Source: Lasiodiplodia sp. COLG20
Lineage: Eukaryota; Ascomycota; Dothideomycetes; Botryosphaeriales; Botryosphaeriaceae
Length of the DNA: 64,000 bases
Reading direction: 5' to 3'
Assembly (NCBI GenBank): GCA_009801085.1
Contig: VNWV01000028.1
Location: 103,362 to 167,361, forward strand
Part shown: piece by piece, positions 6,558 to 62,209 of the stretch
How the letters are laid out: each line of letters opens with the position of its first letter
How positions within the stretch are numbered: the stretch's first letter is position 1
Notes under the pieces: model-generated
Seen by the model: the letters and a program-made list of their open reading frames with translations, nothing else
What the model was told of the DNA's origin: nothing
Database searches by the model: none
Program-made: the position numbers and the translations under genes

Positions 6558-8687
6558 ATGAGTGTGACGTCATCTCACTCGGCGGGGTAAGATATCGCTT
6601 TTGCATTCGTATCAGTGGGCTTACTAACATTTACGGAGGTCCTCCGAGCCTGCTACCGTCCTACACAATGCTGCAACAATTTATTCTCCACTTGACAAAT
6701 CGAAATCCGAAATCCGCCTTCTCACACTCCATACCCTGCAGGACCAACCGGATGGCGCAGGAAAACTTCACGCATCGATGGATACGTTCAGCTTCGACTA
6801 CGGCAATACACCAGTCTATCAAGCTCTGTCGTACGAGTGGAATCCACCTGATGCACCAAGTACGACAGAGGTCTTGATAATAAATGGAAATGAAAAACAA
6901 GTATCTTCGAATCTCTATTTCGCTCTGCTCTCTCTTGGGAGGAGCAGTTGTTGGAACGGCCGATTTTGGGTGGACGCGTTGTGCATCAATCAAGAGGATA
7001 CTGCTGAGCGCAGCCATCAGGTACAACTTATGCGATGGATCTATGGAGAGGCACAAGTCATATTTGTCTGGCTAGGTGTTGAGTGGACTCTGAAAACCGG
7101 GAAATGGGCGGTAAGCTTGCTTCGGGAATACCAAACGCGAGTATTAGGTGGGAAATCAGTGAACCAGACCACGAGATACTTCAGAGGCGACGACAACTAC
7201 AAAGATCACTGGGAAGCCATCGATTCTCTATTCTCTCAGTCCTATTGGAAGAGAAGTTGGATAGTTCAAGAGCTGGTTGCAGCTCAGATGGCATTCCTTT
7301 TGGTGAATGAAGATCTGGACCCACTCAAACCCATGATCGGCCTGAACACATTCATGATAATATTGAGGGTTCCCCAAACCGGGATACTCTTACACGACAG
7401 GTCTACCAATTGGCCGACTATCCATTCATCTGGAGAGAACGTTGACGAGAGAGCGGTTGAACGTCGCATTGACACCCATCATGCAGTAGAGAGCATCTCA
7501 GGAACTAAAAATAAAAACGTCGCAATGGAGTATAACGACCTTCTCTCTCTGTTGGCAAGGTTCTGCAGACAGGTGGCGACGGACCCCCGGGATAAGGTCT
7601 ACAGCCTTCTTGGAATAGCAGAACCAAACAGCGACAGTTCCCTCAGAGTCGACTATGCCCTCACATGGACCGATGTATTCCGGGATGCGGCAATCTACGT
7701 GATTCGGGATCGAAATGATTTGGAACTCCTGGTTTACGCAGGCTCAAGTGTGTCGGAGCTTCCTTCCTGGGTTCCTGACTGGTTGGATCAAGAACGACAG
7801 GGAACCGCGCGGTTCCCGCATAACGCTGTTTGTCCATTCAATCGATGCTGCTCTCCTCACACGGCTAAAACACCTTTTCACACAAAGGGTGCCGGACACC
7901 GTTTACCTACTATTTCCGCTGATGGCTCATTGTTGACCATCTCCGCTAGCCTGTTCAACATACAACCGTGTTCCAACTTTGACTTTTTAGACGTCAATAT
8001 GGAGGCACAGGGACTTTGGACTCCGCTAGGACAGCTTGGGGATATCATCACTTCAAGTATGAGGGCAAATCTGGCTATTTTCAACAACAACGATCCGGAA
8101 TCCACTGCAGCTATGTTCATGCACTTTCATTGTCTTTGGTGGCACTGTATTTTCTATTTCTATCCCGACGCAGTGGAGATATTGGACCAACTTGAATTTC
8201 TCCGCTACATAGCATCAAGAGGACGACAAAGCTTGACGGAACGGCAGCGAGAACTACTCCAGCGCGCTTTGGATGAACAATTTCCGTTCCTTATCGAAGT
8301 CCCACCATCAGTCGGAAGCGCCATATTCAGATGGAGCATCTTTAGCTGTGGTACGTATTTTTTATGTTTATTGGCCAAATGCAGATTTGATGCAGAGCGT
8401 TAACAAAACTAGAACAACTTACAAAGCGAATACTCGATCTCCAGTGCTCTGTATACATCCCAGGGATGTGCTTCTGGTCGCCGCAATGTGGAACTTTGGG
8501 CCCAAATCACGTCCTCGCCTCGATTCCACTTTGCCGATCCCCAATAATCCTATCTAAGCCCGAAGGGAGTGGAACAGGTTACAAAGTCGTTACCAGTGCA
8601 CGTGTTGCAAATTTGGAACATGGCCAGATTGAACAGAATGATGGGACAACCTTTGAACTTCCTGTAGCAGAGATAGACCTAGTGTGA
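6558..8687 (+). CDS. HET-domain (heterokaryon incompatibility) protein
   Basis: Exons 6558-6586, 6639-8350 and 8413-8687 give 671 residues. The HET domain (PF06985) starts near residue 60: KSEIRLLTLH, then VYQALSYEWNPP, LYFALLSLG, FWVDALCINQED, RSHQVQLMRWIYGEA and SYWKRSWIVQE. It ends with a DPRDKVYSLLGIA block near residue 320. HET proteins trigger growth arrest or cell death after fusion with a genetically different strain. The tiny first exon (29 nt) is supported by a 52-nt intron with a TTACTAAC branch site. The last exon restores the usual C-terminal glycine-proline/YKVV block. Without the 62-nt last intron the frame would stop at 8403. The partner specificity is unknown. Confidence 0.88.
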
Positions 8688-39819: not shown

Positions 39820-41387
39820 ATGGCTACCGCTTCTAACATTTGTCTCACCGGCAACGAGAAATTGTCCTTTGCCATCACGCCTCTGAGGCTTGACTCGGCC
39901 AGAAAGGCATCGGAACTTCTGAACGAGAACCATGTCAAGTGGGACACTTATCTGAACGACCAAGGTCACCACGTGTGTTCAGGTCATCTTGTTCTCATCC
40001 GTGCTGTATACTAAGACTCGGCTCCGCAGAATCACCTGCTCCACCACATCCTCACTCTCTACGCCCTTGGAGCCACCCCTGACGAGATGCAAGCCGCCTA
40101 CGACGAGGAGGTCAATTCGCAGCGAATCGCCTTCCCGCCCTACCAGAAGATCATTGACGCACTCCAGACCCCTGCCGGCTTCAACAAATACCTCGGCGAC
40201 TACACGCAGTACACCAACTACCTGGTCTACTTCACAGCCGAAGTCGAGGCCAAGGGCGTGCCCAGGGTACTGGATGAGTACCTCTTCGCGGGCGACGAGC
40301 GCGCCAACGACCTGCTCTCGCGCCTCTTCGTCGGCTTCGGCCACGCCATGATCCACCTCGGCTACGGCATCGAGTTCCGCCAGCCCGCCATCGTGGCCGA
40401 GGCGCTGGCGCAGGCGGCGGTGCACGAGCCCTGGGGCAAGGATTTCTTCGAGGCGGCCGAGCGTGCGGGAGAGGCGCACAAGGCTGCGACCCCCTCCGGT
40501 GATGCTCACCCGTCCATGCTCGAGCTGCTGGAGGAGACGCGTCAGCAGATCTTGCAGCAGCCGGAGGCGGCGAACTACGGGTACAGAGACAACTGCATCA
40601 AGTACGGCATCGTGCATCTCGCATCGGAGCGCCTGCTGCCCGTCTTGGCGAAATGGGTCGTTCGGAGCGATGAACTCGCGCAGAAGACGGCCGAAAACAT
40701 CGACGCTTCTGGTACGTTCCCGCTCTTCCTCCCATCTTTCCACCTCCCTTCTACGCCGCCTTAACTCCACCTCCCCTCTACACCGCCTTAACTCCGCCTC
40801 CCCCTCACACTCCGCCTTAACCCCACCTCCCCTCCAGACTCGACACCCCAACTGACACCTTCTCCCAAACAGTCTTCTACAACACCGCCGCCCAGCACCC
40901 CCCGCACATCCCCAAAATCGACTTTTTCTACCTCCACTCCACCACCGTCTCCGTCCACTTCATCGACTTCCTGACCAACCCCTGGCTCTCCCCCGCCGCG
41001 CGCGTCCGCCTGCTGGAGTGGAAGGGCCGCTGGGACCTGGCCAACTACGCCTCGCGCGGCGCCGCCCCGCTGCTGCGCGACGACGTCGCCACGTACCCCG
41101 CGGACCGCGATGGCTGGGACAGCGTCATCGCGCGCGCGAACAGATACATTCATCCGGAGGATGGTGGACATGCGGCGAAGATGATGCGGGCGATTGTGGC
41201 GGGATGGAGGTTTGTGGAGGGGGTGGAGAGGAAGGGTTTCGCGCTGGAGTCGGAGGAGATGTGGTTGAAGGCGGCGTCGCTGGGGATGGATTCGGTGGAG
41301 GCGGGGTCGCCGGTGTGGGTGAGGGGCGCGGGGTTTGAGGAGGGGTGGAAGGATATTCCGTTGAGGGAGGGTAAGGCGAACTTGTGA
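39820..41387 (+). CDS. Questin-oxidase-like protein (AflY/DUF4243 family)
   Basis: Exons 39820-39972, 40030-40711 and 40873-41387 give 449 residues, normal for the AflY/GedK family of Baeyer-Villiger-type oxidases of fungal aromatic polyketides. Typical blocks: NENHVKWDTYLNDQGHH then, across intron 1, NHLLHHILTLYALGATPDEM with clustered His; FTAEVEAKGVPRVLDEYLF; GFGHAMIHLGYGIEF with conserved His; YGIVHLASERLLPVLAKWV; and HSTTVSVHFI in the last exon. No flavin or haem motif is present, as in the family. Intron 2 (161 nt) is long because of a minisatellite. No polyketide synthase lies in the window, so the substrate is unknown. Confidence 0.88.
40751..40840 (+). repeat. Intronic minisatellite, ~27-29 bp unit, about three copies
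   Basis: Units begin CCGCCTTAACTCCACCTCC at 40756, CCGCCTTAACTCCGCCTCC at 40783 and CCGCCTTAACCCCACCTCC at 40812, all inside intron 2 of the questin-oxidase-like gene. A partial pyrimidine-rich unit precedes them. Confidence 0.8.
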
Positions 41388-41825: not shown

Positions 41826-44800
41826 CTACATGATTATGATTTGTCGAGTTTCAGCTGATTCGAATGGGTGTCCAGCCGATTTTGCCACCACAAAGAGGCC
41901 AATCCGCATGAAGGTCTCTTCGTCCGTTTTATTGTTCCCTTTAAGCTCTTTATAGGCTTTCCTTAACAGAAGACTGGCTCTTTGTGTCAATTGCAGCATG
42001 AGAATTGGGTCGTTGCAGTGCTTCGGCGTACTGGGAATCCCATCCTCTGTGTCAAACCAGCAACTAGCTCGTAGGGGTAAAGACCGGTTCTTGAACAGAT
42101 CGGAGACGATGTCGTATGTGTACTCAAAGGATTCTTTGGTACAAAGGCTCCAGTCAATCTGTACCATTGGCGCCTCGATGATCAAAAGGACGGAGAGACC
42201 ACTCCCTTTAAGCCGCTCATTAGGATGGTCAAACCCCACTTCGTGGGGATGCCCACTGGCTTCAAGAACTCTGGCAGTGCTCACCACATCTTGGGGCCAG
42301 TAGTGGACACAGCGTCCCTCGCCGAAAGCCCATGACCACGTAGGAAAATGTTTCTGAGCGTCTCGAGGATGGGTACGGCTGTAGGCGATACCAAAGAAGG
42401 CCGCGTATAAAATCGGTAACCCATAGACCAGCAATATACCTTCCGCCAAATGCTTTGGCACTGCTTTGAGCCAAAGCATCTAGAGCCCTGAGTCTGTCGC
42501 CAGGGTAGGTCAAGCCGAGGCTGGAGAATAGTTCCACCGTGCGATACCAGTCCGAGCGCTCATCCGTCTGCTTTTCCAGAGCTGTACAACGTTCTAAACC
42601 CGACTCCCAAACTATTCTTTCTTTACATTGCATGTAAACCTGTTCAGTACGTAGGGGGTCTTCTCGGGCTTGAAGAACTAAGTTCCGTGGTGCCGATCGG
42701 ATTTCTTGGAGTATCCACGCTCGACGATGAGCTGCAGAATTGAAGTGCCAGGAATTTGGATAATTCTCAGGATTCAGGCCACACATATTGTAGAATGCCT
42801 CGCTGGCAGGCCACCCGATTGTAAATTCTGTAGATTCATCCTTGGAGTGATAATCCGGAAATCTACCGGCAGTCTCGTGTGATGGTTGAAGTGAGACAGA
42901 TGCATCAGGCACTCCAGCAACAATGTTCAAATATGAGTTGGTGTATATCGAAGGCATCTCCTTTACCATCATACTCCAGTCGTGGGGATCGTCTTGAAAA
43001 GTGCAGAGCCTGTCCACCCAGAGAAATCGAATTCCCAGACTCTTAGTAAGTGTGATTGCGTCCATAATGACTGAAGGAATTTCTTCAAATGGAATACTTG
43101 AGCAATACTGCTCCATGTTGACACTTTTAGTGAAGCCTCGTTGTCGTTCCATTCCCCAACAATACGATAGCGTTGTATAACGCGGGGGAGCGTCGAGAGA
43201 TAGATCAATCGTAAGAAGGCGTGGGTTTCTTACATCGTCTCCAACCTGTATAAGGCGAAAAAAAGGCAGTCGGATCTTGGCTGTCCGCGTGCAGGAATTG
43301 TGTTGGGTTTCGCACGTTCGTAGCCATTGAGATACTTTTGGGATGACGGCTCCGTTCGTGGCAAAATATTTCGGAGGTGTGACCAGACTTTTGTGAGTAC
43401 TCACACTAGCTATATATCCCTGTCAGTGCCAGGATCGTTTTCAGCGTTCCTTATCAACTTACCCGAGAACTCAAAGCTCAGTCTTCCAACCAAATTGAGG
43501 CATTGAACTACCAGGAATGGGTCTCCAGTGGGATCTGCATATAGCATAATGTTGGATGATTCCGCCTTTGATGCAATAGTGTTGCTTGCGGTAATCTCTG
43601 CCTTGCTTGTGTCCGCCTCCGTTAGAATCGGCAATTGGTTGGACCGTCTGGAAATCCACTGGTATACAAGTGAGTTAAGCAGCAAAATACACATCGGGCA
43701 GCGCGAACCAGCGGAAACTCGAAGGTCTTGCAAGCTCCAGCGGTGACGTTGTGGATCCTTGAGATTCGCAAGCTTTATTTCCTTGCAGGCAATACATGGG
43801 CCTACCTGTTTAGGGTGTTTGCTTGGGGTGCCGCCTTGCTGTCGGTGCGACTTTGGTGGTGATAATGGATTGAAAGGCGTGGGAGGCTGAGGATATGTCA
43901 TGGAGCGGTAAACGTGGGGAGTTGAACCTCTGCTCTCAAGTAACAAGGATTCGATCTTGGATTTATGAACGTCCCTGGAATCTTCGGCGTGGAAATACCA
44001 GTGATCAATGGCATACTGAAATAATGGCCATTCACCGTCGACATCCGAGTCTGTTGCTGCCGAAACTTTGCGAGTACCAACATGCACTACGTACGCGAGC
44101 AAGGTTTCAGCCATCGTCAAGGCGGAATCATCCTCAGAAATGCTAAAGAGCTTAGCTGAACTTTTCTGGATGTTGTAGCCGAGAAGATACTCTCTGACGC
44201 TCGAATGAGCAAGATGTATCCTGGACGACTCAGAAGGAAGGCAATTTCCTGGCCAATCTCCAGCGACTCGGTCACTGTCAAAGGCCATATCATCTTCAGG
44301 GTCGTCGGAGTGGGTGAAGCCTTCGAACACAATCAAAGGAGTACAGATGTCGATAATGTTATGGGAGTTCAACAATTCGACCGTCCCATCGAAATACGGC
44401 TTTTCCTGTGACTTGACCGGGATTGTGTGGGCTAATTCAGACAGGGTTAAAGGCCTTTTAGACAATGTAACCCATTCAAGAATGCGTCTGACAATCCATC
44501 GCTCTTCTGATTCAACTGTATTCAAAAACAGCTCGTATGTCTCATCCAACGTCTTCGGAAGGTTGTCCAGGAGTTTATTAAGATCCTTTCGGGTTCTGCA
44601 AGCTTCGACTTTTGAGAGAGGAACAGAAATATAGCGGAAGCTGTTTCTAAAATCAGCGCGGTGATGACGGAACGGAGGAAAGATGGTCCATACATGCCCT
44701 CTGCGCTTCTCACTAATTCATTCACAATTCGCTGCTGGTCTTCTTCCGCCCACCTTCTCATCCCTTTTTTGAGTTTCAACCTGAGATGGTGCTCTATATC

Positions 44801-45773
44801 CAAATTTACTTCGGCACTTCTAACTTCCATGAAGGTGACATCGGCCTCAGATTTCAGAGCGAGGAGGGCGGGCTGGACAGACGGAAGCTCTCTGCTGCTC
44901 ACAAGCAGGTGTACCCCGGGTAGACACCAACCAGTAAGTGTTTCAATGAACTCTAGAGTATCTTCGAGCTCTTTGCTTTCATCTAATGCATCGATGATGA
45001 TGAAAACAGAACGGTGTAGCTCCAGAGTGTCTTTGAGTAGAGAGTAAAGTTCGTCGAAGTATGGCTCTCGGTTACCTTGATTCGCATTCTTGTAAAATTT
45101 TTCGACCCTCCTTCGTGTAATGTCAGTTGACGCCCCGATTTGATGGACAAGGCTTCTCAACAAAATGTCGAAGAGCTGTGTCTGTGGCTCGTTAACTGTG
45201 ATATAGTAATGAGCTACTACGACATCCGCTTGATCGCATTGCTCGTGTATCAATTGTCGGGCGACTGAGGAGCTGAGTAGCTGTAAGTTGAATTCAAACT
45301 GATGGAATGTGAAATTTGTACCATAGAACTGTCTTGCCACAGCCCACTATACACTGTCAGCAGTCATTCAATAGACACGAGGCTCATTGGGTTTACTCTT
45401 TCCGCGTAGCCATATTATCGAATTGGGGCTTTGTTTCCATCTTGCTAGTTCGGCACTTTCTATGAGCCACCGACCTGTGCTTTGATCTTTTCTCTCGCGT
45501 TGGATCCGGTTGTATAGGCTGGTCTGATCGAGCTCAGGGTTGGGCATGAAAATCCAAGACCTCATCTTAGACCACTGCTCATCTGCAGCCTCATGGTAGT
45601 CTAGAAAAGGTGAGTACAATATGTTCAATTTTTTATTAACGCACTCACGAATTGTGTTGCCATATTGTGCGTACTGAGGGCCAGAGCCTTAATTAGTAGT
45701 CCTAATGCCACTGTAGCTACTTGCTCCCCCTAGCGATACCATGGTGATGCATCCAGTGCGTTGGACAGATCAT
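41826..45773 (-). CDS. NLR-type protein: R0-like N-terminal motif, NACHT NTPase, C-terminal HET domain (apparent frameshift)
   Basis: Seven exons on the minus strand: 45773(or 45752)-45740, 45687-45649, 45600-45397, 45346-45322, 45272-44694, 44640-43463 and 43409-41826. Phases agree at every junction. The short N-terminus carries GSGPQYAQYGNTIHY, like a HET-s-type amyloid repeat. The NACHT core has IIWLRGK then GCGKTVL (Walker A, on a 25-nt exon), FIIIDALDES (Walker B) and LPKTLDETYELFL. After ~200 residues of helical region comes a complete HET protein: CIACKEI...GSRCPMC, RYTTLSYCWG, LGIRFLWVDRLC, RRAWILQEI, RYIAGLWVTDF. Near 42345-42348 the frame must shift by one base to continue into FPTWSWAFGEG. 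Otherwise it stops at 42262. A 61-nt GT-AG intron could also switch frames but would delete the conserved AGLW...LLW block. Expected role: sensor that triggers a HeLo executioner. Confidence 0.78.
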
Positions 45774-46219
45774 CAAAGCGAACAAGGAGAAATCTCTGAC
45801 AGATGTCTGCACAGTGGGATGTGGCCCTCACGCATTCGCACTTATGCCCGCCCTTGTGTGCCCCATCAGAGATTTGCGTTACCCGGCGGATATGAGTCAT
45901 CCGCTGTGGAGAGCTTCAGCCGTGGGGAATAGGAAAACAAACGCGCCCTCGAGGAGATCTGCAAAATTTTCACTGCGGGGCAATTGGACATATCCTAGGC
46001 ACCCATGCCGGTTGATCACGGAAGGTGCTGCCCCGAGACGAAACTGTCTCCATACATAAGCGACTTATGGCCCCCACCCAAATGGACCACAGCCATCAAT
46101 CATGATTGGCGCAGCAAGGATGAGATAACGCAAGCCCTAATCATCCAAGTCACGCCACAGCTTGGGTTCGTTACTGACGACACCAAAGCTCTTCTCTTTC
46201 AATACCAGTCAACAGGAAC
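45774..46219. promoter_or_regulatory. Shared divergent promoter of the NLR and HET-S-like genes
   Basis: Only ~446 bases separate the two start codons, so both genes are probably driven from this stretch. No convincing TATA box on either side and no other gene. Confidence 0.5.
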
Positions 46220-47086
46220 ATGGCAGAAGCTGCAGGACTCGGCATCGGCGTCGTCGGCCTTGCCGGCTTGTTCAGTACCGCCGTCCAGTAGTTCGAATAC
46301 GTCCAGATCGGAAAAGATTTCGGAATCGATTTCCAGTCAGCCCAACTGGAACTTGACATCTGTCGGCTGAGAATCCTTCGATGGGGTGATGGCGTGGGGC
46401 TCACAGCAGTGTCTACTGAGGCGCGAGCTCTACCAGCCACAGTTGGTGGATCGGCCCAGGACATTCTCTTGGCTGAAAGGACTCTGGGGCAGATCAACGC
46501 TCTGTTCGAGAAGATCGACGTCGCATCAAGGAGGTACATCTCTACGCATACTGCAAGCACCGTCTACGATCCCGATCATGACATGGACCAGAAGCACATG
46601 AATCTGCGCCAGATCATGCAACATCTGGCAGGGAAACGGCAACGGACCATACCTGTTAGAAAGAAGTTTCAGTGGGCAGTTCACGGAAAATCCAATCTTG
46701 ACAGGCTCATCTCGGATGTCAAAAGTTTGACTGATGCTTTGACAACAACATTCGAGGTGACCAAGCCCAAGCAGCAAAGCCTTGCTGAGATTGAAGTCGA
46801 AAAGTTTCAAGATGATAGCCTTCCTGAGCTCGAAGCCACGTCGAGAGAATTCGACCCGATCTTCAACCAAGCGGCCGGGAAGGAAATCAAAACGCGGCCA
46901 AGCTATGAGAATCAGAAATTCGAAGTACTGGACGGTGCAAAAGCTTTAAATGGCCATTTTGTGGACAGCGGCTACAATGGCCCGAACATCACATTCGACT
47001 ACACCTTTGAGGACTGGAAAGCTTCGGGAGAAGGTAGTAGGGTGCACAACGGAACAAAGTTCGGCGGGAAGGATCCTTTCGATTGA
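46220..47086 (+). pseudogene. HET-S-like protein: HeLo domain plus HRAM amyloid tail, interrupted by an in-frame stop
   Basis: One uninterrupted frame of 288 codons except for a TAG at 46289-46291 (codon 24); P. anserina HET-S is 289 residues. The start MAEAAGLGIGVVGLAGLFS is the glycine-rich membrane-inserting helix of HeLo domains. The stop sits directly before FEYVQIGKDFG, where relatives usually have Cys. The HeLo body continues (QLELDICRLRILRWGDGVGL; KKFQWAVHGKSNLDRLI) to about residue 230. The tail holds two repeats, GAKALNGHFVDSG and GEGSRVHNGTKFGGKDPFD. The second resembles the HET-s R2/C-terminal loop. HET-S proteins kill by membrane insertion after amyloid templating. With the stop, the killing helix is cut off. 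No sensible intron removes it. Sequencing error or readthrough are alternatives. Confidence 0.85.
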
Positions 47087-50669: not shown

Positions 50670-53380
50670 CTAAGGCTGACCCACGCTCAAGCCAACAGAA
50701 TTATCCATATCTTCACACCCATTCGCGTGGCCGCCCTTAGGATTCGACGATGAATTGTCCTGCAATAAACCTATATCACGTTTGAATTCTCGAAGCCAAT
50801 CGGCATTATCAGCTGGAGTTTGGTTCCATGGGTCATCGCTGGCAGGCGTGGATTAGCGACCTTCGCTTTGGACAGGACAAGAGCATGACAGACGACGACA
50901 TGTACTTACTCATCGAACATGATCCATCGCGCCTGGTATTGAATCTCCTCATCCGTAGGTACATGGCTATTCGGGTTCCGGGCGGACATGGTGCTCGCGA
51001 CAAAGCGGGAGAGCTCTCGGGCGAGACGTCTGTAACAGTTGTCATCGCTAAGAAAGAAGGGAATGGAAGTTTCCACCCAGTGGCCAGCGTCAGATCCGAT
51101 TGCAGAACCGCCGCTAGCTGCCGTGTCGCTGAGATTGACAGACGTCATGGACATCGGCTCTCTGCATGGCGAACCATCGCTCGGAATGGTCGAGCCGCTA
51201 TTGAACGTAGTGGCGGGACAGTGTTGGGCCGACGAGCCGTCCACAGGATCGAGACCCGCACGCTGACGAAATGGCGCAAGCCAGTGCGTTGAGCCATTGA
51301 TCAGCCCGGTCAATAAGCCGACGAATGTCTCTGAAGGATTTGGCGACATTGCTTCCATGCGCCCGATGATGCTGCATGCTTCTCGCTGGAGCTCGCCATC
51401 TCCTATCCCAAGGTTGAGCAGATTCAATGTCTCGGCATACTCGCGTAGCTGGGCCTCCATGTTGCATGCTTCAAAGATTCTATCTTTGCCGACAATAATG
51501 AGTTGAGTAATGCGGGACTTTGCGGCGGCTTTCATGGGGCGGATGCGTGCTTTCCTGGTGATTTCCTCCGAGGACATGAGGACATCGCGTAGCCAAGATG
51601 GTGCCGGTGTCGTAGGGTCTCGTGAAAGCAGGTCGGAACCGAAAATGATACAACAAGCCTCGTACTGGAGCTCTTCATCTGAAGGACTCCGGTGGTTTGC
51701 ATTGACGTAGTTGGCTACGAAGTACTCCAACTCCAACTGGAGCAACTCAAATGCACTAGTCGGGGTTTCGGGCGGTCCTTTCTGCGTAGTCCATGGCCAA
51801 GGCGAGTTCCGTTCATACTGGATCAGGTCTACAAGTCGGCTGTTAGCCAGCTTCGGAGGCAACGCTGAGGAACACTTACACGGAGGCATAGAGTTTTCTA
51901 TCATGGCAAGCACGGGAGCCTCGAACCCCCAGCCACCCTGCCAATCGGCAATCGATTTTCCGTTTTTAAAGTGCTCAGCCAGATGGTTTCCTCGATCAGT
52001 CCACGTGCTGAAAACGATGCCACAAAAGCCGCAACGGGACCGAATGTCTCGGCTTTCGCACTTCCATTGCTCCATCGGCCACTTCATAAAATTTGCGTTG
52101 TGCACTAGCTTCAGGTGTTGTCGTAGATGATCTTTCCGATAAAATGTCCGATCCTCTAGCGGGCGCTCCTGGCAGGCAGCGGAGTCATGGTTGTTGAGAT
52201 GGTTCTGATCCGGATTCAGTTCTCCGCAGTAGACGCAAACCGACACTGAATTGTCATTCACCATCGTGGGCCCGCATGGTGAGCACTGCCATTGCTCAAG
52301 CGACAGGTGTAGTGACTTTTCGTGCCGCTCCCAATTATGCTTGCTTTTAAATGTCTCGGTGCAGAATGTGCACTGAAAAAGATGGAAAGCTTGAGATAAA
52401 GAGTGGGTACCCTTTTCTTTAGGCCTGTTACAACCACGCCGTCGTCGTCTACGCTTAGTAGTTTTTCTGAGGTTGTCGACTGGTAGAGGCGAGGATTCGG
52501 AAGTTTGGGAGTGAGCGAAGGAGACGGAGCTTCTGCTAGAATGTGAAGTGCCTGCACTGCTGGCAGACAGGTCGTTGTGGAGCGAGCTATCCAATGTGAA
52601 GGTGTGGTGTGAGTCGTTTATATCCGTTGGGACGGCCGACACTGCGCGGGCAATTGCGGAGACGCTAGCGGGTTCATGCTCGGGCGGCGAGTTCTGCCAT
52701 CGCTGTAAAGGGTTCATGTTTTCAAAAGGGGCAGGAGAATCGCATCGGCGGGGTATGCCGATGGAGGGAGAACGTATTGTCGCGCTCTGCTGAGATCGGA
52801 ACTTCATGCGTCGGCGCGCGTTTGCGAACCAAGTTGCAATTTGTTGCTTGCTAAGTCCTGTTTGTCTCTCGAGAATCTCTATATCTCCAACAGTAGGGTA
52901 TGGTGTTTGCGCATGGCTAAAAAACCAAGCTTTCAATACCCTGATTGAGTTTGAGGAAAACCGCTTTCCGATCTTGGGAAGTGCTGTTACGTCAGCACTT
53001 TGATGCTGTTTGCTGCTATTGGATTCGCTATCCGGGAGCTCAATCGGCTGGTGGTTCCCCATGTACGAAAGTGGAATGGTGTTGCCGCGCTCGTGGATCC
53101 CTGGGTGGACAGTCTGCATTGTGTTGTCGTTGAGCCTGTGTGGTAGATCGAGTTGGCTCGAAGACTCAGTGGAGGCTGGGCCATCCTGTTGCGGTGGCGC
53201 AAGGCCTGGTAACAATGACCACCCCGAGTCCTTGGATTGCTCAGGATCCTGAAGAGAATTCGTCCGCCGGTTGAAAGTGTCGAACTCCGGGAGTTGATCC
53301 ATATCAAGAGGGATGGCCAAACCGATGCCAGAAGCTGCCCTCAGCTCATCGAACAATTCGTCATGGCGTCGCTCCATCAT
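50670..53380 (-). CDS. TALE-type homeobox plus C2H2 zinc-finger transcription factor
   Basis: Exons (minus strand) 53380-51880, 51828-50910 and 50838-50670 give 862 residues. The homeodomain is at about residues 139-195, with the TALE three-residue insertion (AQTPYPTVGDIEIL) and the recognition helix QIATWFANARRRMKF. A basic KRRRRRR stretch follows near 310. C2H2 fingers follow: FQCTFCTETFKSKHNWERH (~337), CVYCGELN...HLNNH, RKDHLRQHLKLVH and CGFCGIVFSTWTDRGNH. The C-terminus ends in the DDPWNQTPADNADWLREFKR block common to this fungal family, encoded on a short last exon after a donor hidden at the apparent stop GAGTAAGT. Intron 1 (51 nt) is stop-free. It is a nuclear DNA-binding regulator, probably of development. 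Confidence 0.92.
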
Positions 53381-54006
53381 ACCTCACCGTTCATTCGTGT
53401 CACCGTCCAAGCCTGCACTATACAAACTGTAGGAGAATGGGTAGGCTTCGAGCCGAGGATTGGGAATCATGCATAGCGAGGTCTGGCAACAAAAGACCCA
53501 CAAAAACCATGTCAATATCGCCCTTGGGAGTAAAGCTCCGAAGTCGGACCCGCTTGTGCGGGCCGGAGATTGCGGGGCTGCTAGTAGATCATGTGAAGCC
53601 CGTGCTAACTTTTAAGTGCCGATAAGACGCCGGCAATGCGCCCAAGACGTTCGTTTTTGCCGCAAACATCTAGGCGGTCCTATTCCTAGCCTATCGGTTC
53701 CGGTAGAGGTTAGGAATAATTTCGATCTATATGGATGCTCCTTGGCTCAGACGTTTATTCATAGTCGAAGAAATAGATATCTCGTATTCTTTACCGCGGA
53801 ACTTGAGCTTAGCGGCGTCCGAGCTTAGCTGGTGGGTGAAGAAGGGCGAGGGGCCAAAGAGATTGCTACTGTCTTCAATACCGCCCGCATTCAGCAAGAT
53901 GTCTGCTGATTTTTTCAAAAACACCTTGACAGATTTAGACACCTGTAGTAGGATATAGAATTGAATCAGAAACTCAAAATTAACTATCTAATGATAATAA
54001 ATAGCA
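53381..54006. other. Intergenic, no gene seen
   Basis: About 625 bases holding the homeobox promoter and the 3' end of the ValRS gene. Overlapping 70-75 codon frames at 53727-53958 on both strands are unassigned. The last part is AT-rich. Confidence 0.5.
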
Positions 54007-57352: not shown

Positions 57353-59039
57353 GGTTGGACTCTGACCCGCAAGTGAACGAGGCCGCGATACAGGCTACAA
57401 GGAGGAAAGCGGAGGATATAATATACTGCTGGAAAGCCATGGAGATAGCGATGGGGCTTGTGGCAAAAGAGAGTATGTGAGGCAGGTAGGCAGCAAGTAG
57501 CGGTGACTCACCAAGCACGTAAACAAGGATAAGCGCTACCTGGAGCATCTCCAAATCTGGAAAAGCCAGCAAGCTTAAGCGAGCAGACGAGCACACACTA
57601 GGTGCTATCAATCCATTCTGTTTCCCGCCTCTCTCTGGAATGTTTTAATTTCGGGAATCGGGCTGTGTTGTCGCATCATGTAGTGCACCATGGTTAGGCT
57701 CCAAGGAGCGCATGCACGCAGTACACCGCCCCACACTTTTTACCCGTGCTCTATTACCCCATTCATCGCACACCGATGAGTCACGATCTGCGCACAAGGG
57801 GATCGGAAGGTCCAAGCCACCATGTCAATTGTAAGGAAGTCTTTAGCGGAGCTGACTATGGCCATTCAGAAATGACTTCCCGATCTGAGTCTGCTGCTGC
57901 TAACAATGACGATAACAGCGGTGCTAGTCTTCATGGTGCTCTTTACATTCCCGTAGAACAGTGCTGAGAAGGATTGGTGAGTCTGCTTATAAGCAGACTT
58001 ACTGTGTGAGTAGTTCAAGCGTTGCCGGAGTCACTACGAATTGCCAGGTTGGAACGTCTTGCCTGAGATTACACATTGAAAGTCGGTAAATTTGTGCTGT
58101 CCTGGTGATTTCATGGCCTTGAGCTCGTACGTGACATTCTTTAGGATTGACAAAGCTTCCTCCCAATACCTTGTTTACATAATAATATGAGTGCTATTCG
58201 CATTTTAGCTATAATACTCTACAAGATTTGCTCAAAGAGCTACGTATGTATAAATCAAAGAACTCCACATTGAGGGATGATTTGCACTTCGCATGGTCAT
58301 CTCGGAAGAGGAAAGCCAAACTGCACAAGCTGCTGAGGAAGGGCGTCAGAATTGCGTCAACGTGCATATGTGCAGCTGCACCTGACGAGGCTGCCCAGAG
58401 CCGGTTTCACACCGTTCGGGTAGGAGCCAATGCATCGGCTTATTCCGCCTTTTCCAAGCCTCGCCCAAAGCAACACAGCCTCAGTTCACGCCGGAATCTA
58501 TTTGTGTCATTAGAAAATGGTGTCGTATCCTCCTGGAATGTTATGATGTGTGGCGCAGCGAGCGATGCTTAGCCTTGCCGCTAGCGCATGCATGATAGCA
58601 TAGCCTCTAGAACTTTAGGGCTTGCCGTCTTAATTAACTCATATCTATTACTGTGATGAACAGTACGGTTACAGCTTGGGACTGATTTTCGCACGGAAAT
58701 GTAAAACGATTATCAAGGTAAATCCGGTGAATTTATCATGGGTTCAGAAGTTCCCACGTTGATTAAAAGTGCACCCACTTGGACAGCCGAGCGGCACGGC
58801 TAAGCCTATTTTGGAACCTGAAGCTTACGTGCATGACAGGAAGCAGTCAAATCAGGCTATTTGGTGAGGCGTGCGAAACCTTTCACGTCAGCACTATGCA
58901 TACGTTGCAGAGACTCTCAGCCTTGATTGTCTCTTCCGGTCGCCCCTCTTCTTTCCAACATCTTCTGCAGCTCTTCAGTGCTATCTCAAATAGTGTCCAC
59001 AACTTGTTCTTGGGTGCACCGATCAGCACTTGCTTCATT
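57353..59039. other. Divergent intergenic region, no gene seen
   Basis: About 1.7 kb between the ValRS (-) and ankyrin-protein (+) starts, holding both promoters. A 114-codon frame at 58228-58572 lacks motifs. Contains a 20-bp perfect palindrome at 57980-57999. Confidence 0.55.
57980..57999. repeat. Perfect 20-bp palindrome AGTCTGCTTATAAGCAGACT
   Basis: The sequence is identical to its own reverse complement across 20 bases with no spacer. It lies in the ValRS/ankyrin divergent region, ~630 bases upstream of the ValRS start. Confidence 0.9.
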
Positions 59040-62000
59040 ATGGCGGACCCTTTCTCCGTGGCCGGAAGCGCCGTCGGCGTCGTCTCCCTCGGGATCTCCG
59101 TGTGTCAAGGCCTTGTCAATTATTACTCTACATTCAAAGGGCAAGATGATGAGATAGGCGAGATGGTTGGCAAGGTTGAAAGGCTAACAGATCTGCTGGA
59201 GACACTTCAGCATCACCTATCAAGCCCACGATTCAGGCACTCTGTTTCGGTCGAGAAGGTCGAACAGAATATTCTCGCATGCGCTACAGCTCTCAATAAA
59301 CTGGACGAAATTCTTTCAAAATGCACACAAGAGTCTACGGTTGAAGATCTCCAGCGTAAACTCCGAGCGATATCGAGAAGAATGCTGTACCCTTTCAAGC
59401 AGAAGACTCTGCAGGATCTCAGCGGTGCGGTCTCCCAGTGTCAGAGAGACTTGGGAACTGCTGTGCAGATTCTTCAAATGTGAGTGCTCCGTGATTGCTT
59501 GGTATCGCATGACGCATTAACATTTCTCAGTGATCAACTTTCCACCGTGGAGTTTTCGAACGCTGCTATTCTAGAGAACACAGCAATCACTCGTGATATC
59601 ATCGAAGTACATACACATGAGGTCTTGGGCATGCGAGAAGATATCCAGCGGTTGATGGATGCGGTACCCGCTCTCGTATTGTCTTCGATGAGACCACGGC
59701 CAGAAGGGAGTATGGAAAATGCCGCGTCGCGGTCCCTGGACGTGTCTAGGGCCGTTCTCAAGCCTCGAGCCTTCAGGGAGAGAGCCATCATGGATCCGGA
59801 ATCCTATTCTTCACAATGCAGATGTCGCCCACGGACCAAGTTCACAGAACGACAAATTAGACTGGGTCCCGTAACACTCATCCGCACTAGTAGGTCGAGA
59901 GCTTTGCATAACGAAGACTGTCAGTACTTTGTGCGCGAAAGCCAAGATGAAGGAGCTGGACTTAGGTTTCAGGTTGGTACTAGGTCCAGGAGATGGAATA
60001 TGATGGCCGCCTTGAATTACAATCATGCTGTTGGAGCATTCTCAATAACCTCTACTTTAATGTTCCAAGCTATGGTACCGGACAACCACCCATTGTTTCA
60101 GATTACCGAAGATATATTATATGGGAGACAGGACTTCGAAGCCGGTCTACGGTCCATTCGACTGTTGTTCCAAAACGGCGAGGCGGCGCCCAACGACGTC
60201 CGTGATGATGGACAAAATGTACTACATGTAAGGTCCTGGTGCGTGCACTAAATTGTGGTATAATCAGTTTCTCACAGAATAAGGTGGTCCTCGGGTACAC
60301 GAAAGGAAACAAGAATCATGCCATGAATGGTGTGTTACAACAACGCATCGAACAGCTCGTCACAGCATTCCTGTGTCTAGGCACCAACGTGAATGAAAGA
60401 TGCAAAAGCGGATCGTAGGCCCTCTTTTCTTGAAGACTGGGGATCTCGAAAGGCAGTTAACGTATCAGTAGCCATCTTCTCTTCCTATGCCATCAAAATC
60501 TCTTCGTCTATTGGCCCGATATCGACCGAAGTCTATTCCTCTATGGTGTTCAAAAGAAAATCGCCATGCATCGAGATTGCGATTACGATTTGAACGAAAT
60601 TTTCCATTTCATTGAGTTTATGCTCTTCTTTTCTTGCCATCGAACTCGGGCCGTTGTTGAAGTATGGCAAATGGATGTGTATTTGGCTAAAGGTGAGTAG
60701 GACTAGACAATTTGTGTCTTCACCCTGCTAAGTATACCAGAAATGGGGCTTTCGAATCTGTGTCTAGCCGTGCTAGGCAAATCGATAGACGAAGTCGACA
60801 GCATTTTGAGCCAGACGCCCACTGCAGTGTTATCCACGACGCCATTTGAGCATACAGTACTTCACCTAGCAGCAGACTGGCCGATTGGAATGGCGACCCT
60901 TCTCTCAAGAGGAGGAAAACCTTTGGTTCACGCGTTGGACTTGGCCGAACAATCTCCATTGGACCTTGCTTGCTCCTACGGCTGCATCCCTGCTGTGAAG
61001 CTTTTAATTCAAGCAGATAGTCCCATTGATCTGAAGCTCATTTGCTATCTGGAAAGCCATTCAATATGGGGTCTATTCAAGATACTCGTCAAAGAGCTCG
61101 CACGAAGGAGGAACCTCCTCATACAACTCGCCAGGACAGAGCTCCCTGAAGTCAAGTACCAAGGCCTGGAGCTCCCTGTTGGACATCCGATGAGCGACAT
61201 TGAAACATTCCTTGTCCTTGACGAGCTGCAAAAGAATTATATTCCAACCACTAAAGCCTTGGAATATTACGGATATACCCAGGTGTCCGAAGGTTATTCT
61301 GTCAGCTCATTTGGATGCTGCTTCGGCAAGACAGCTAAAGGGGCAGACATTGTACACAATGCCGGGTTCCTACTCGATCGGATTACAAGAGCCTATGAGG
61401 AATACCAACTTGGCGGACAAAGTGTAGTGTTTTTGAGAGAGCACTGGCCAGAACAATCAACCTTAACACAGCGTCTCGACAAGATGTTGTGGCTCCTAGG
61501 GAGGGGCATTACATTGTCGGAATATGATGTACACGATCTGTTCAGTCCGTTGCATGACTCACACTCGCTGGATGGTGAAAATGGAGACATGTTTTCATCT
61601 TGTGAGGAAAGGACGGACCTGATGCTACAGCTACTTTCGGCTCGTTCTGGGCTTTCACATGAATGCCCATGTTGCATCGATGTGTGTTTTCCAGCAATTG
61701 CATCGCTGAGAACTGTTGGAAAGGCTCCTTTCCACGACATTGACGATCCGGACACAGACAACCTCATTTTTGCAGGCCTTCTAGGGTTACTAAAGGCATG
61801 CAAAATTGATTTTGGCTCTCAGTACTGGATATGGGCGATGCCAGGATTGATACATTCGGTTCTTTATGAGGCCTGCGGCCTTACGCATTCGAATGACTGC
61901 TGCAAGGGAGAATGGGAATCCGATGAAGATGACATCAAGGAGAAACAGGAGGAAGAACAACACATGAGATCTAGACTCAGCAAGCTTACGGAAGAATTGG

Positions 62001-62209
62001 CTGCCGAGTATCAGGAATCGAGTATGCCGCTGTCAGGTTTTCTTCGAGATCGTGTGATTGTTCGAGCCCTGGACCTCGTTGACGGAGAGGAGGAGGCATC
62101 TACAGAAGATAGGAAAAGGTTAAGGGGGATCGGAGTGATGGTACTGGAAGAGGAAAGCGAAAGGGAAAGTGATGGAGATGAGATTGCAAATGATAACAGA
62201 TTGTGGTGA
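59040..62209 (+). CDS. STAND-type N-terminal domain plus ankyrin-repeat protein
   Basis: Exons 59040-59479, 59531-60227, 60278-60414, 60469-60692 and 60741-62209 give 988 residues. The start MADPFSVAGSAVGVVSLGIS and the ~130-residue helical block after it form the HeLo-like/fungal N-terminal domain (PF17111 type) found on NLR-like proteins. No P-loop follows. Instead there is a ~180-residue middle region (including SQCRCRPR and a FxRESQDE segment). Ankyrin-like repeats occur in exon 5 (HTVLHLAADWPIGMATLLSR; SPLDLACSYGCIPAVKLLI), followed by a long cysteine-containing C-terminal region and an acidic end. All intron phases agree. Such proteins are counted among fungal non-self recognition candidates. 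The role is inferred. Confidence 0.82.

What the first reader, a model, noticed from the sequence alone, without database searches (positions are those of the whole stretch)
41826..47086. Divergent NLR / HET-S-like pair, a candidate amyloid-signalled cell-death locus
A HeLo-domain protein the length of HET-S lies head-to-head, ~450 bp away, with a NACHT NLR. This is the arrangement of het-S and NWD2 in Podospora, where the NLR's N-terminal motif templates the executioner's prion domain. Here the NLR ends in a HET domain rather than WD40 or TPR repeats, so the pair would be a new receptor architecture for this pathway.
Basis: partly seen in the sequence, partly recalled or inferred. Interest (0 to 1): 0.92.

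Follow-up and report, generated by a model that had tools for sequence, protein, structure and literature searches.

The report
Broken HeLo gene beside NACHT-HET receptor
In a filamentous fungus, a HET-S-like cell-death gene lies head-to-head with an unusual immune-receptor gene that ends in a HET domain, but both reading frames look interrupted in this assembly and the amyloid motif that should link the two proteins was not found.

Summary
Two things were missed. The HeLo frame has an in-frame TAG after codon 23 that three relatives lack, and the HET domain's PTWSWA segment lies in another frame than the rest. Both genes look broken in this one assembly. The central claim, that the NLR's N-terminal motif templates the HeLo tail, is not supported: the tail fits the published two-repeat HET-s motif only loosely, and no matching motif was found at the NLR start. 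The same test recovers shared motifs at 3 of 4 other HeLo loci of this genome. The newer point is the receptor. A relative from another assembly (P0008) is 62% identical across the junction from winged helix to the region before HET, in one frame, which supports a real, conserved fusion; its HET domain itself is not seen. HET is C-terminal here; in the passages read it is N-terminal in NLRs. Verdict: a probably decayed cell-death pair with a new receptor variant.

The parts
46220..46288 (+). HeLo gene, first 23 codons, much like the start of the relatives
   Evidence: one search scanned 46222-46290, which is off frame, so its blank result says nothing
46289..46291 (+). in-frame TAG that interrupts the HeLo gene
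   Evidence: (1 TAG inside); no stop there in P0001-P0003
46292..47086 (+). rest of the HeLo gene, 264 codons plus stop: HeLo domain and C-terminal tail
   Evidence: PF14479 E 7.7e-32; 68-72% identity, without gaps, to P0001-P0003
46901..47083 (+). HeLo C-terminal tail: two loosely HET-s-like pseudo-repeats, 12-residue loop, diglycine and aromatic end
   Evidence: PF11558 not matched by the tail
45479..45742 (-). NLR start region: candidate starts 45742 and 45663 (a further model starts at 45900), candidate introns 45739-45674 and 45648-45601
   Evidence: no RNA evidence
44890..45478 (-). NACHT/NPHP3_N domain, with introns 45396-45347 and 45321-45273
43463..44646 (-). winged-helix-like part, Pro-rich linker and CxxC region leading to HET: the fusion junction (after intron 44693-44647)
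   Evidence: GPIID_WHD 19.9 bits, below cut-off 27; P0008 62% identical from the winged helix to the end of this exon
42262..43409 (-). HET domain exon, after intron 43462-43410; HET profile match about 43179-42703
   Evidence: PF06985 E 2.8e-25, 2.1e-24
41826..42344 (-). HET tail from PTWSWA onward, in another frame; the change of frame lies between 42385 and 42344

Best explanation
The locus is a fungal self-destruction (incompatibility or immunity type) pair that appears to have lost function in this strain. One gene was a HET-S-length HeLo protein; HET-S itself kills the fungus's own cell by exposing its N-terminal helix and acting as a pore-former (established for HET-S, inferred here). 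The other is a NACHT receptor, most like NACHT-ankyrin receptors, in which the ankyrin repeats are replaced by a HET (TIR-related) domain. In relatives with whole frames, NACHT oligomerisation would bring the C-terminal HET domains together and trigger death, with HeLo as a second executioner (inferred). Shown: domains, order, divergent layout, conservation of the junction up to the HET domain, a stop in HeLo, a change of frame in the HET tail. Inferred: function, oligomer-driven activation, any link between the two genes, and that the lesions are real rather than assembly errors.
For: Domains. Stop in HeLo while the next 264 codons stay open and are 68-72% identical to three relatives. In 7 of 7 other HET loci compared, the second frame's best short match falls on the P-S/T-WSWA segment in the same open frame as the first frame's match, 11-29 residues further on in 6 and overlapping its end in L036 (each short match is weak, E 0.35-4.5). 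Junction conserved in P0008. NLR closest to NACHT-ankyrin proteins. Same divergent layout as het-s/nwd2 (passages of PMC3321046).
Against: One assembly only: an error could mimic either lesion. A 67-base GT-AG stretch (42420-42354) could, if spliced, join the two HET frames, at the cost of the conserved GLLWYR segment and with a poor donor (donor judged by eye). No RNA data. The HeLo frame is otherwise clean, so a loss would be recent. P0008 ends before the HET domain. No RIP signature that would explain decay.
Confidence: 0.55

Rival explanations
1. Active amyloid pair of the HET-S/NWD2 kind: an NLR N-terminal motif too diverged, or too split by introns, to be seen templates the HeLo tail, and the two interruptions are sequence errors.
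For: Adjacency and divergent order. The tail fits the two-repeat rule of PMC4518210 loosely: 36-74 of 2000 shuffles score as well in four proteins, the window's and three relatives'. G19 in both repeats, K/R at 15 in both repeats of the window protein, loop of 12, diglycine and aromatic end.
Against: No shared motif found although the same test finds one at 3 of 4 other HeLo loci. PF11558 does not match the tail, though it misses most known cases. In the window protein position 5 of repeat 1 and position 18 of both repeats are not hydrophobic; in the three relatives repeat 2 has no K/R at 15. Two interruptions at once.
Confidence: 0.12
2. Unrelated neighbours: a HeLo pseudogene and a NACHT-HET gene that happen to lie together in a genome rich in such genes.
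For: 118 HET matches at E <= 0.001 and 44 matches to the winged-helix-to-HET frame at E <= 0.01 in this genome, lower bounds. No shared motif. No NLR-HET hit named Lasiodiplodia, where two of the HeLo relatives are.
Against: 44 NLR places in 43.5 Mb would put one within 1 kb of a given HeLo gene about 0.2% of the time (my arithmetic from lower-bound counts). HeLo-type genes often lie beside NLR genes: 98 of 155 in PMC4518210.
Confidence: 0.28
3. NACHT and HET are two separate genes that I read as one.
For: An internal ATG lies in the junction. Elsewhere in the genome a NACHT-ankyrin gene is followed 0.7 kb on by a separate HET gene on the same strand (L039). P0008 does not reach the HET domain.
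Against: One open frame of 435 codons spans the junction, and P0008 keeps it in one frame at 62% identity.
Confidence: 0.05

Closest known systems
het-S/nwd2 pair of Podospora anserina
   Same: HeLo protein of the same length class (relatives 288-289 residues), divergent NACHT receptor next door
   Different: no shared amyloid motif found between tail and NLR start; receptor ends in HET, not WD40; both frames interrupted here
HNWD receptors (HET-E, HET-D, HET-R)
   Same: HET and NACHT in one protein
   Different: there HET is N-terminal and WD40 repeats are C-terminal (passages); here HET is C-terminal and no repeats were found
NACHT-ankyrin receptors such as P0009 (Glonium stellatum) and P0010 (Trematosphaeria pertusa)
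   Same: NACHT and winged-helix half, 29-30% identity over 96-97% of the 496-residue query
   Different: ankyrin repeats there; linker, CxxC region and HET here
HeLo genes with motif-sharing neighbours in the same genome (L001/L025, L026, L027)
   Same: HeLo gene near an NLR or ankyrin gene
   Different: their tails share a motif with a neighbouring frame; the window's tail does not

Membership tests
HET-S/NWD2-type amyloid pair (HRAM) | HeLo executioner domain | tested here: met
   (sequence homology; frame interrupted)
HET-S/NWD2-type amyloid pair (HRAM) | adjacent NLR gene | tested here: met
HET-S/NWD2-type amyloid pair (HRAM) | two-repeat C-terminal amyloid motif | tested here: inconclusive
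   PF11558 does not match the tail, but only 38 of 155 known cases do (PMC4518210); rule fit: 68 of 2000 shuffles as good for the window, 36, 44 and 74 for relatives, with a score written after seeing the tail
HET-S/NWD2-type amyloid pair (HRAM) | one matching motif at the NLR N-terminus | tested here: not met
   3 of 4 other HeLo loci pass the test; the NLR start itself is not confirmed by RNA
HET-S/NWD2-type amyloid pair (HRAM) | intact reading frames | tested here: not met
   one assembly
HET-S/NWD2-type amyloid pair (HRAM) | amyloid formation and cross-seeding | not testable with these tools
NLR (STAND receptor) | NACHT domain | tested here: met
   (PF24883 116 bits, PF05729 37.7 bits, both over cut-off)
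NLR (STAND receptor) | winged-helix domain | tested here: inconclusive
   17.4-19.9 bits, below Pfam cut-off 27
NLR (STAND receptor) | C-terminal repeats (WD40, ANK, TPR, HEAT) | tested here: not met
   none among the Pfam matches
HET-domain proteins | PF06985 domain | tested here: met
HET-domain proteins | P-S/T-WSWA segment in the same frame | tested here: not met
   compared with 7 other HET loci

The most novel reading that the evidence does not exclude
A conserved receptor class with the death domain at the opposite end: NACHT and winged helix followed by a C-terminal HET domain in place of the sensor repeats, divergently paired with a HeLo pore-former, so that one locus carries two executioners and the receptor signals through HET instead of an amyloid template.
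Probability: 0.3. Interest if true: 0.62.

Novelty: new variant of a known kind. Interest (0 to 1): 0.42.

Why it matters
Fungal NLRs are described as effector, nucleotide switch, repeats, in that order. A conserved NACHT protein with HET at the far end would widen that grammar and ask how such a receptor senses anything without repeats. The locus also shows how an amyloid claim can be checked: within one genome, HeLo genes whose tail shares a motif with a neighbour can be told from those without, so adjacency alone is not evidence of amyloid signalling.

Tried and rejected
Structure prediction of the HeLo piece: switched off, not tried again. PDB searches with the tail, alone and as a four-sequence profile: 4 and 7 matches that I take as chance, none named as a HET-s entry. 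PF11558 genome search: no match here and none in the controls, so it shows nothing. Genome-wide search with the tail found only itself; as a control the same search found the partner for one of two other HeLo tails (yes, E 0.025; no), so this is a weak negative. RIP as a cause of decay: indices do not support it. A second NACHT-HET fusion in the genome: two places with an NLR match and a HET match within about 6 kb on one strand were looked at and neither is fused (L039: NACHT-ankyrin, then a separate HET gene; L040: NACHT-ankyrin); one pair about 10 kb apart on C31 was not looked at. A faulty exon join and a wrong last acceptor were replaced. Literature. Four phrases for a C-terminal HET or NACHT-HET receptor gave 0 papers (open-licence papers only); one search was swamped by the word NLR and shows nothing.

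Corrections to my notebook: the entry says 7 of 7 HET loci carry the segment 10-26 residues on; it is 11-29 residues in 6 and overlapping in 1. The entry calls the L027 neighbour NACHT-ANK; only ankyrin repeats were found there. The entry gives the HeLo start as 46222 and the TAG near 46291-46293; they are 46220 and 46289-46291.
Full report
What is there. The window is the end of a 167 kb contig of a 43.5 Mb genome in 88 contigs. A HeLo gene starts at 46220 and ends at 47086 (+). After 23 codons a TAG in frame (46289-46291) interrupts it; the next 264 codons are open. That piece matches Pfam HeLo at E 7.7e-32 and three solved chains named SMALL S PROTEIN at 2.6e-20 to 4.4e-20. The protein search found 3 relatives at E <= 1e-3 among 827 candidates: two from Lasiodiplodia theobromae and one without an organism name. 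They are 68-72% identical over the whole piece, 288-289 residues long, and have no stop at that place. So the gene has HET-S length but is broken in this assembly. That the host is one of the Botryosphaeriaceae is an inference from these relatives (the family name is recalled).

The neighbour. On the minus strand a gene model with five introns of 47-53 bases gives a NACHT/NPHP3_N domain, a winged-helix match below cut-off, a Pro-rich linker, a CxxC region and a HET domain. Four start models pass my splice rules (45900, 45742 with two splicings, 45663), so the gap to the HeLo ATG is 319, 477 or 556 bases. After the GLLWYR segment (42402-42385) the PTWSWA segment (42344-42327) follows in another frame. 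I compared the two frames with open frames from 7 other HET loci, the best 7 after the window itself of 118 matches. In 7 of 7 the second frame's best short match falls on the P-S/T-WSWA segment in the same open frame as the first frame's match: 11-29 residues further on in 6, overlapping the end of that match in L036. Each of these short matches is weak by itself (E 0.35-4.5). I read this as a change of frame. A sequencing error cannot be excluded, nor a 67-base splice that would drop the conserved segment.

The fusion. One frame of 435 codons spans winged helix, linker and CxxC region. The last protein search scored the 7995 candidates that shared most words and found 33 at E <= 1e-3. The best, P0008, from a 3.2 kb contig without an organism name, is 62% identical from the winged helix to the end of that exon, in one frame. 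It ends about where the window has an intron, so its HET domain is not seen; the CxxC region before it is what ties it to HET. No other hit carries HET (PF06985) among its precomputed domains (0 of 33). The earlier search with the 1054-residue protein found 4 hits among 7284 candidates, none with PF06985. These searches find only relatives that share exact words, so they do not prove rarity.

The amyloid claim. PMC4518210 (abstract and Results read) defines two 21-residue repeats with G at 19, hydrophobic residues at 5, 8, 10, 16, 18, a preference for K/R at 15, a loop of 6-18 residues in 154 of 155 sequences, and an end often with aromatics and diglycine; adjacent NLRs carry one such repeat. 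The HeLo tail fits in part: 68 of 2000 shuffles of the window tail score as well, and 44, 36 and 74 for the relatives. In the window protein position 5 of repeat 1 and position 18 of both repeats are not hydrophobic; in the relatives repeat 2 lacks K/R at 15. On the NLR side, a profile of the eight repeats found nothing better than E 0.83 in the window besides the tail itself, and none of the four start models has a G in place for such a repeat. The best ungapped match of the last 60 residues to the six frames of the flanks is ordinary: 29 of 200 shuffles as good with 1.5 kb flanks, 21 of 200 with 5 kb. The same test on 4 of the other 10 HeLo places of this genome gave 0 (C23, 1.5 kb), 0 (C34 at 1.58 Mb, 1.5 kb), 4 (C34 at 0.62 Mb, 6 kb) and 176 (C32, 3 kb) of 200. 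Three share a motif with a frame near an NLR or ankyrin gene, one does not. This is the strongest result against the proposed mechanism. A genome-wide search with the tail found only itself, but its control succeeded for one of two.

Literature. In the passages seen of PMC4986451, PMC12258605 and PMC12881547, HET is an N-terminal effector of NLRs, proposed to be related to TIR domains, and NLR C-termini are mostly repeats. Passages of PMC3321046 describe het-s and nwd2 as divergently transcribed neighbours whose orientation varies between species. Of PMC5485727 I saw the abstract and one section, of PMC9815663 the abstract and one section. Four phrases for a C-terminal HET receptor gave no paper.

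Mechanism. Most likely this was a self-destruction pair: a NACHT switch that clusters C-terminal HET domains, and a HeLo pore-former beside it. In this strain the HeLo frame stops after 23 codons and the HET tail is out of frame, so I expect neither executioner to work (inference). Whether the two genes ever signalled to each other is open. If the loss is real it is recent: the HeLo frame is otherwise clean, and there is no RIP signature.

Verdict.

Noticed in passing
L001/L025 (G000:C23:494459-504000): HeLo gene with a Ses_B/PP-type tail (PF17046 E 1.1e-6), divergent from a gene with TPR repeats and a weak NACHT match (below cut-off); a matching motif lies at the start side of that gene (PF17046 there only 17.7 bits, below cut-off). 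Looks like an amyloid pair with open frames.
   Followed up: partly
L026 (G000:C34:1575000-1584000): HeLo gene and a NACHT-ankyrin gene in the same direction; the HeLo tail shares a motif with a frame between them (0 of 200 shuffles; E 0.025 genome-wide; domains).
   Followed up: partly
L027 (G000:C34:614000-623500): HeLo gene convergent with an ankyrin gene (no NACHT match in the piece scanned); a motif with IGQQIG is shared between the HeLo tail and a frame upstream of the ankyrin gene (4 of 200 shuffles as good).
   Followed up: partly
L039 (G000:C1:3577500-3587000): NACHT-ankyrin gene followed 0.7 kb on, same strand, by a separate HET gene: a layout from which a NACHT-HET fusion could arise.
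   Followed up: partly
window 6628-8400 (+): A further HET-domain open frame of 591 codons (PF06985 E 3.8e-25).
   Followed up: no
window 58767-62206 (+): A PigL_N-type domain (E 1.4e-8) followed by frames with weak ankyrin matches below cut-off, perhaps a further STAND-like gene.
   Followed up: no
window 40015-41387 (+): Questin oxidase-like gene tail-to-tail with the NLR-HET gene (PF14027 E 9.2e-64 on 40015-40761).
   Followed up: no
window 50909-53383 (-): 825-codon frame with a KN homeobox and C2H2 zinc fingers.
   Followed up: no
whole genome G000: 118 matches to the window's HET frame at E <= 0.001, a lower bound (107 of 297 candidates scored): a very large HET family.
   Followed up: no
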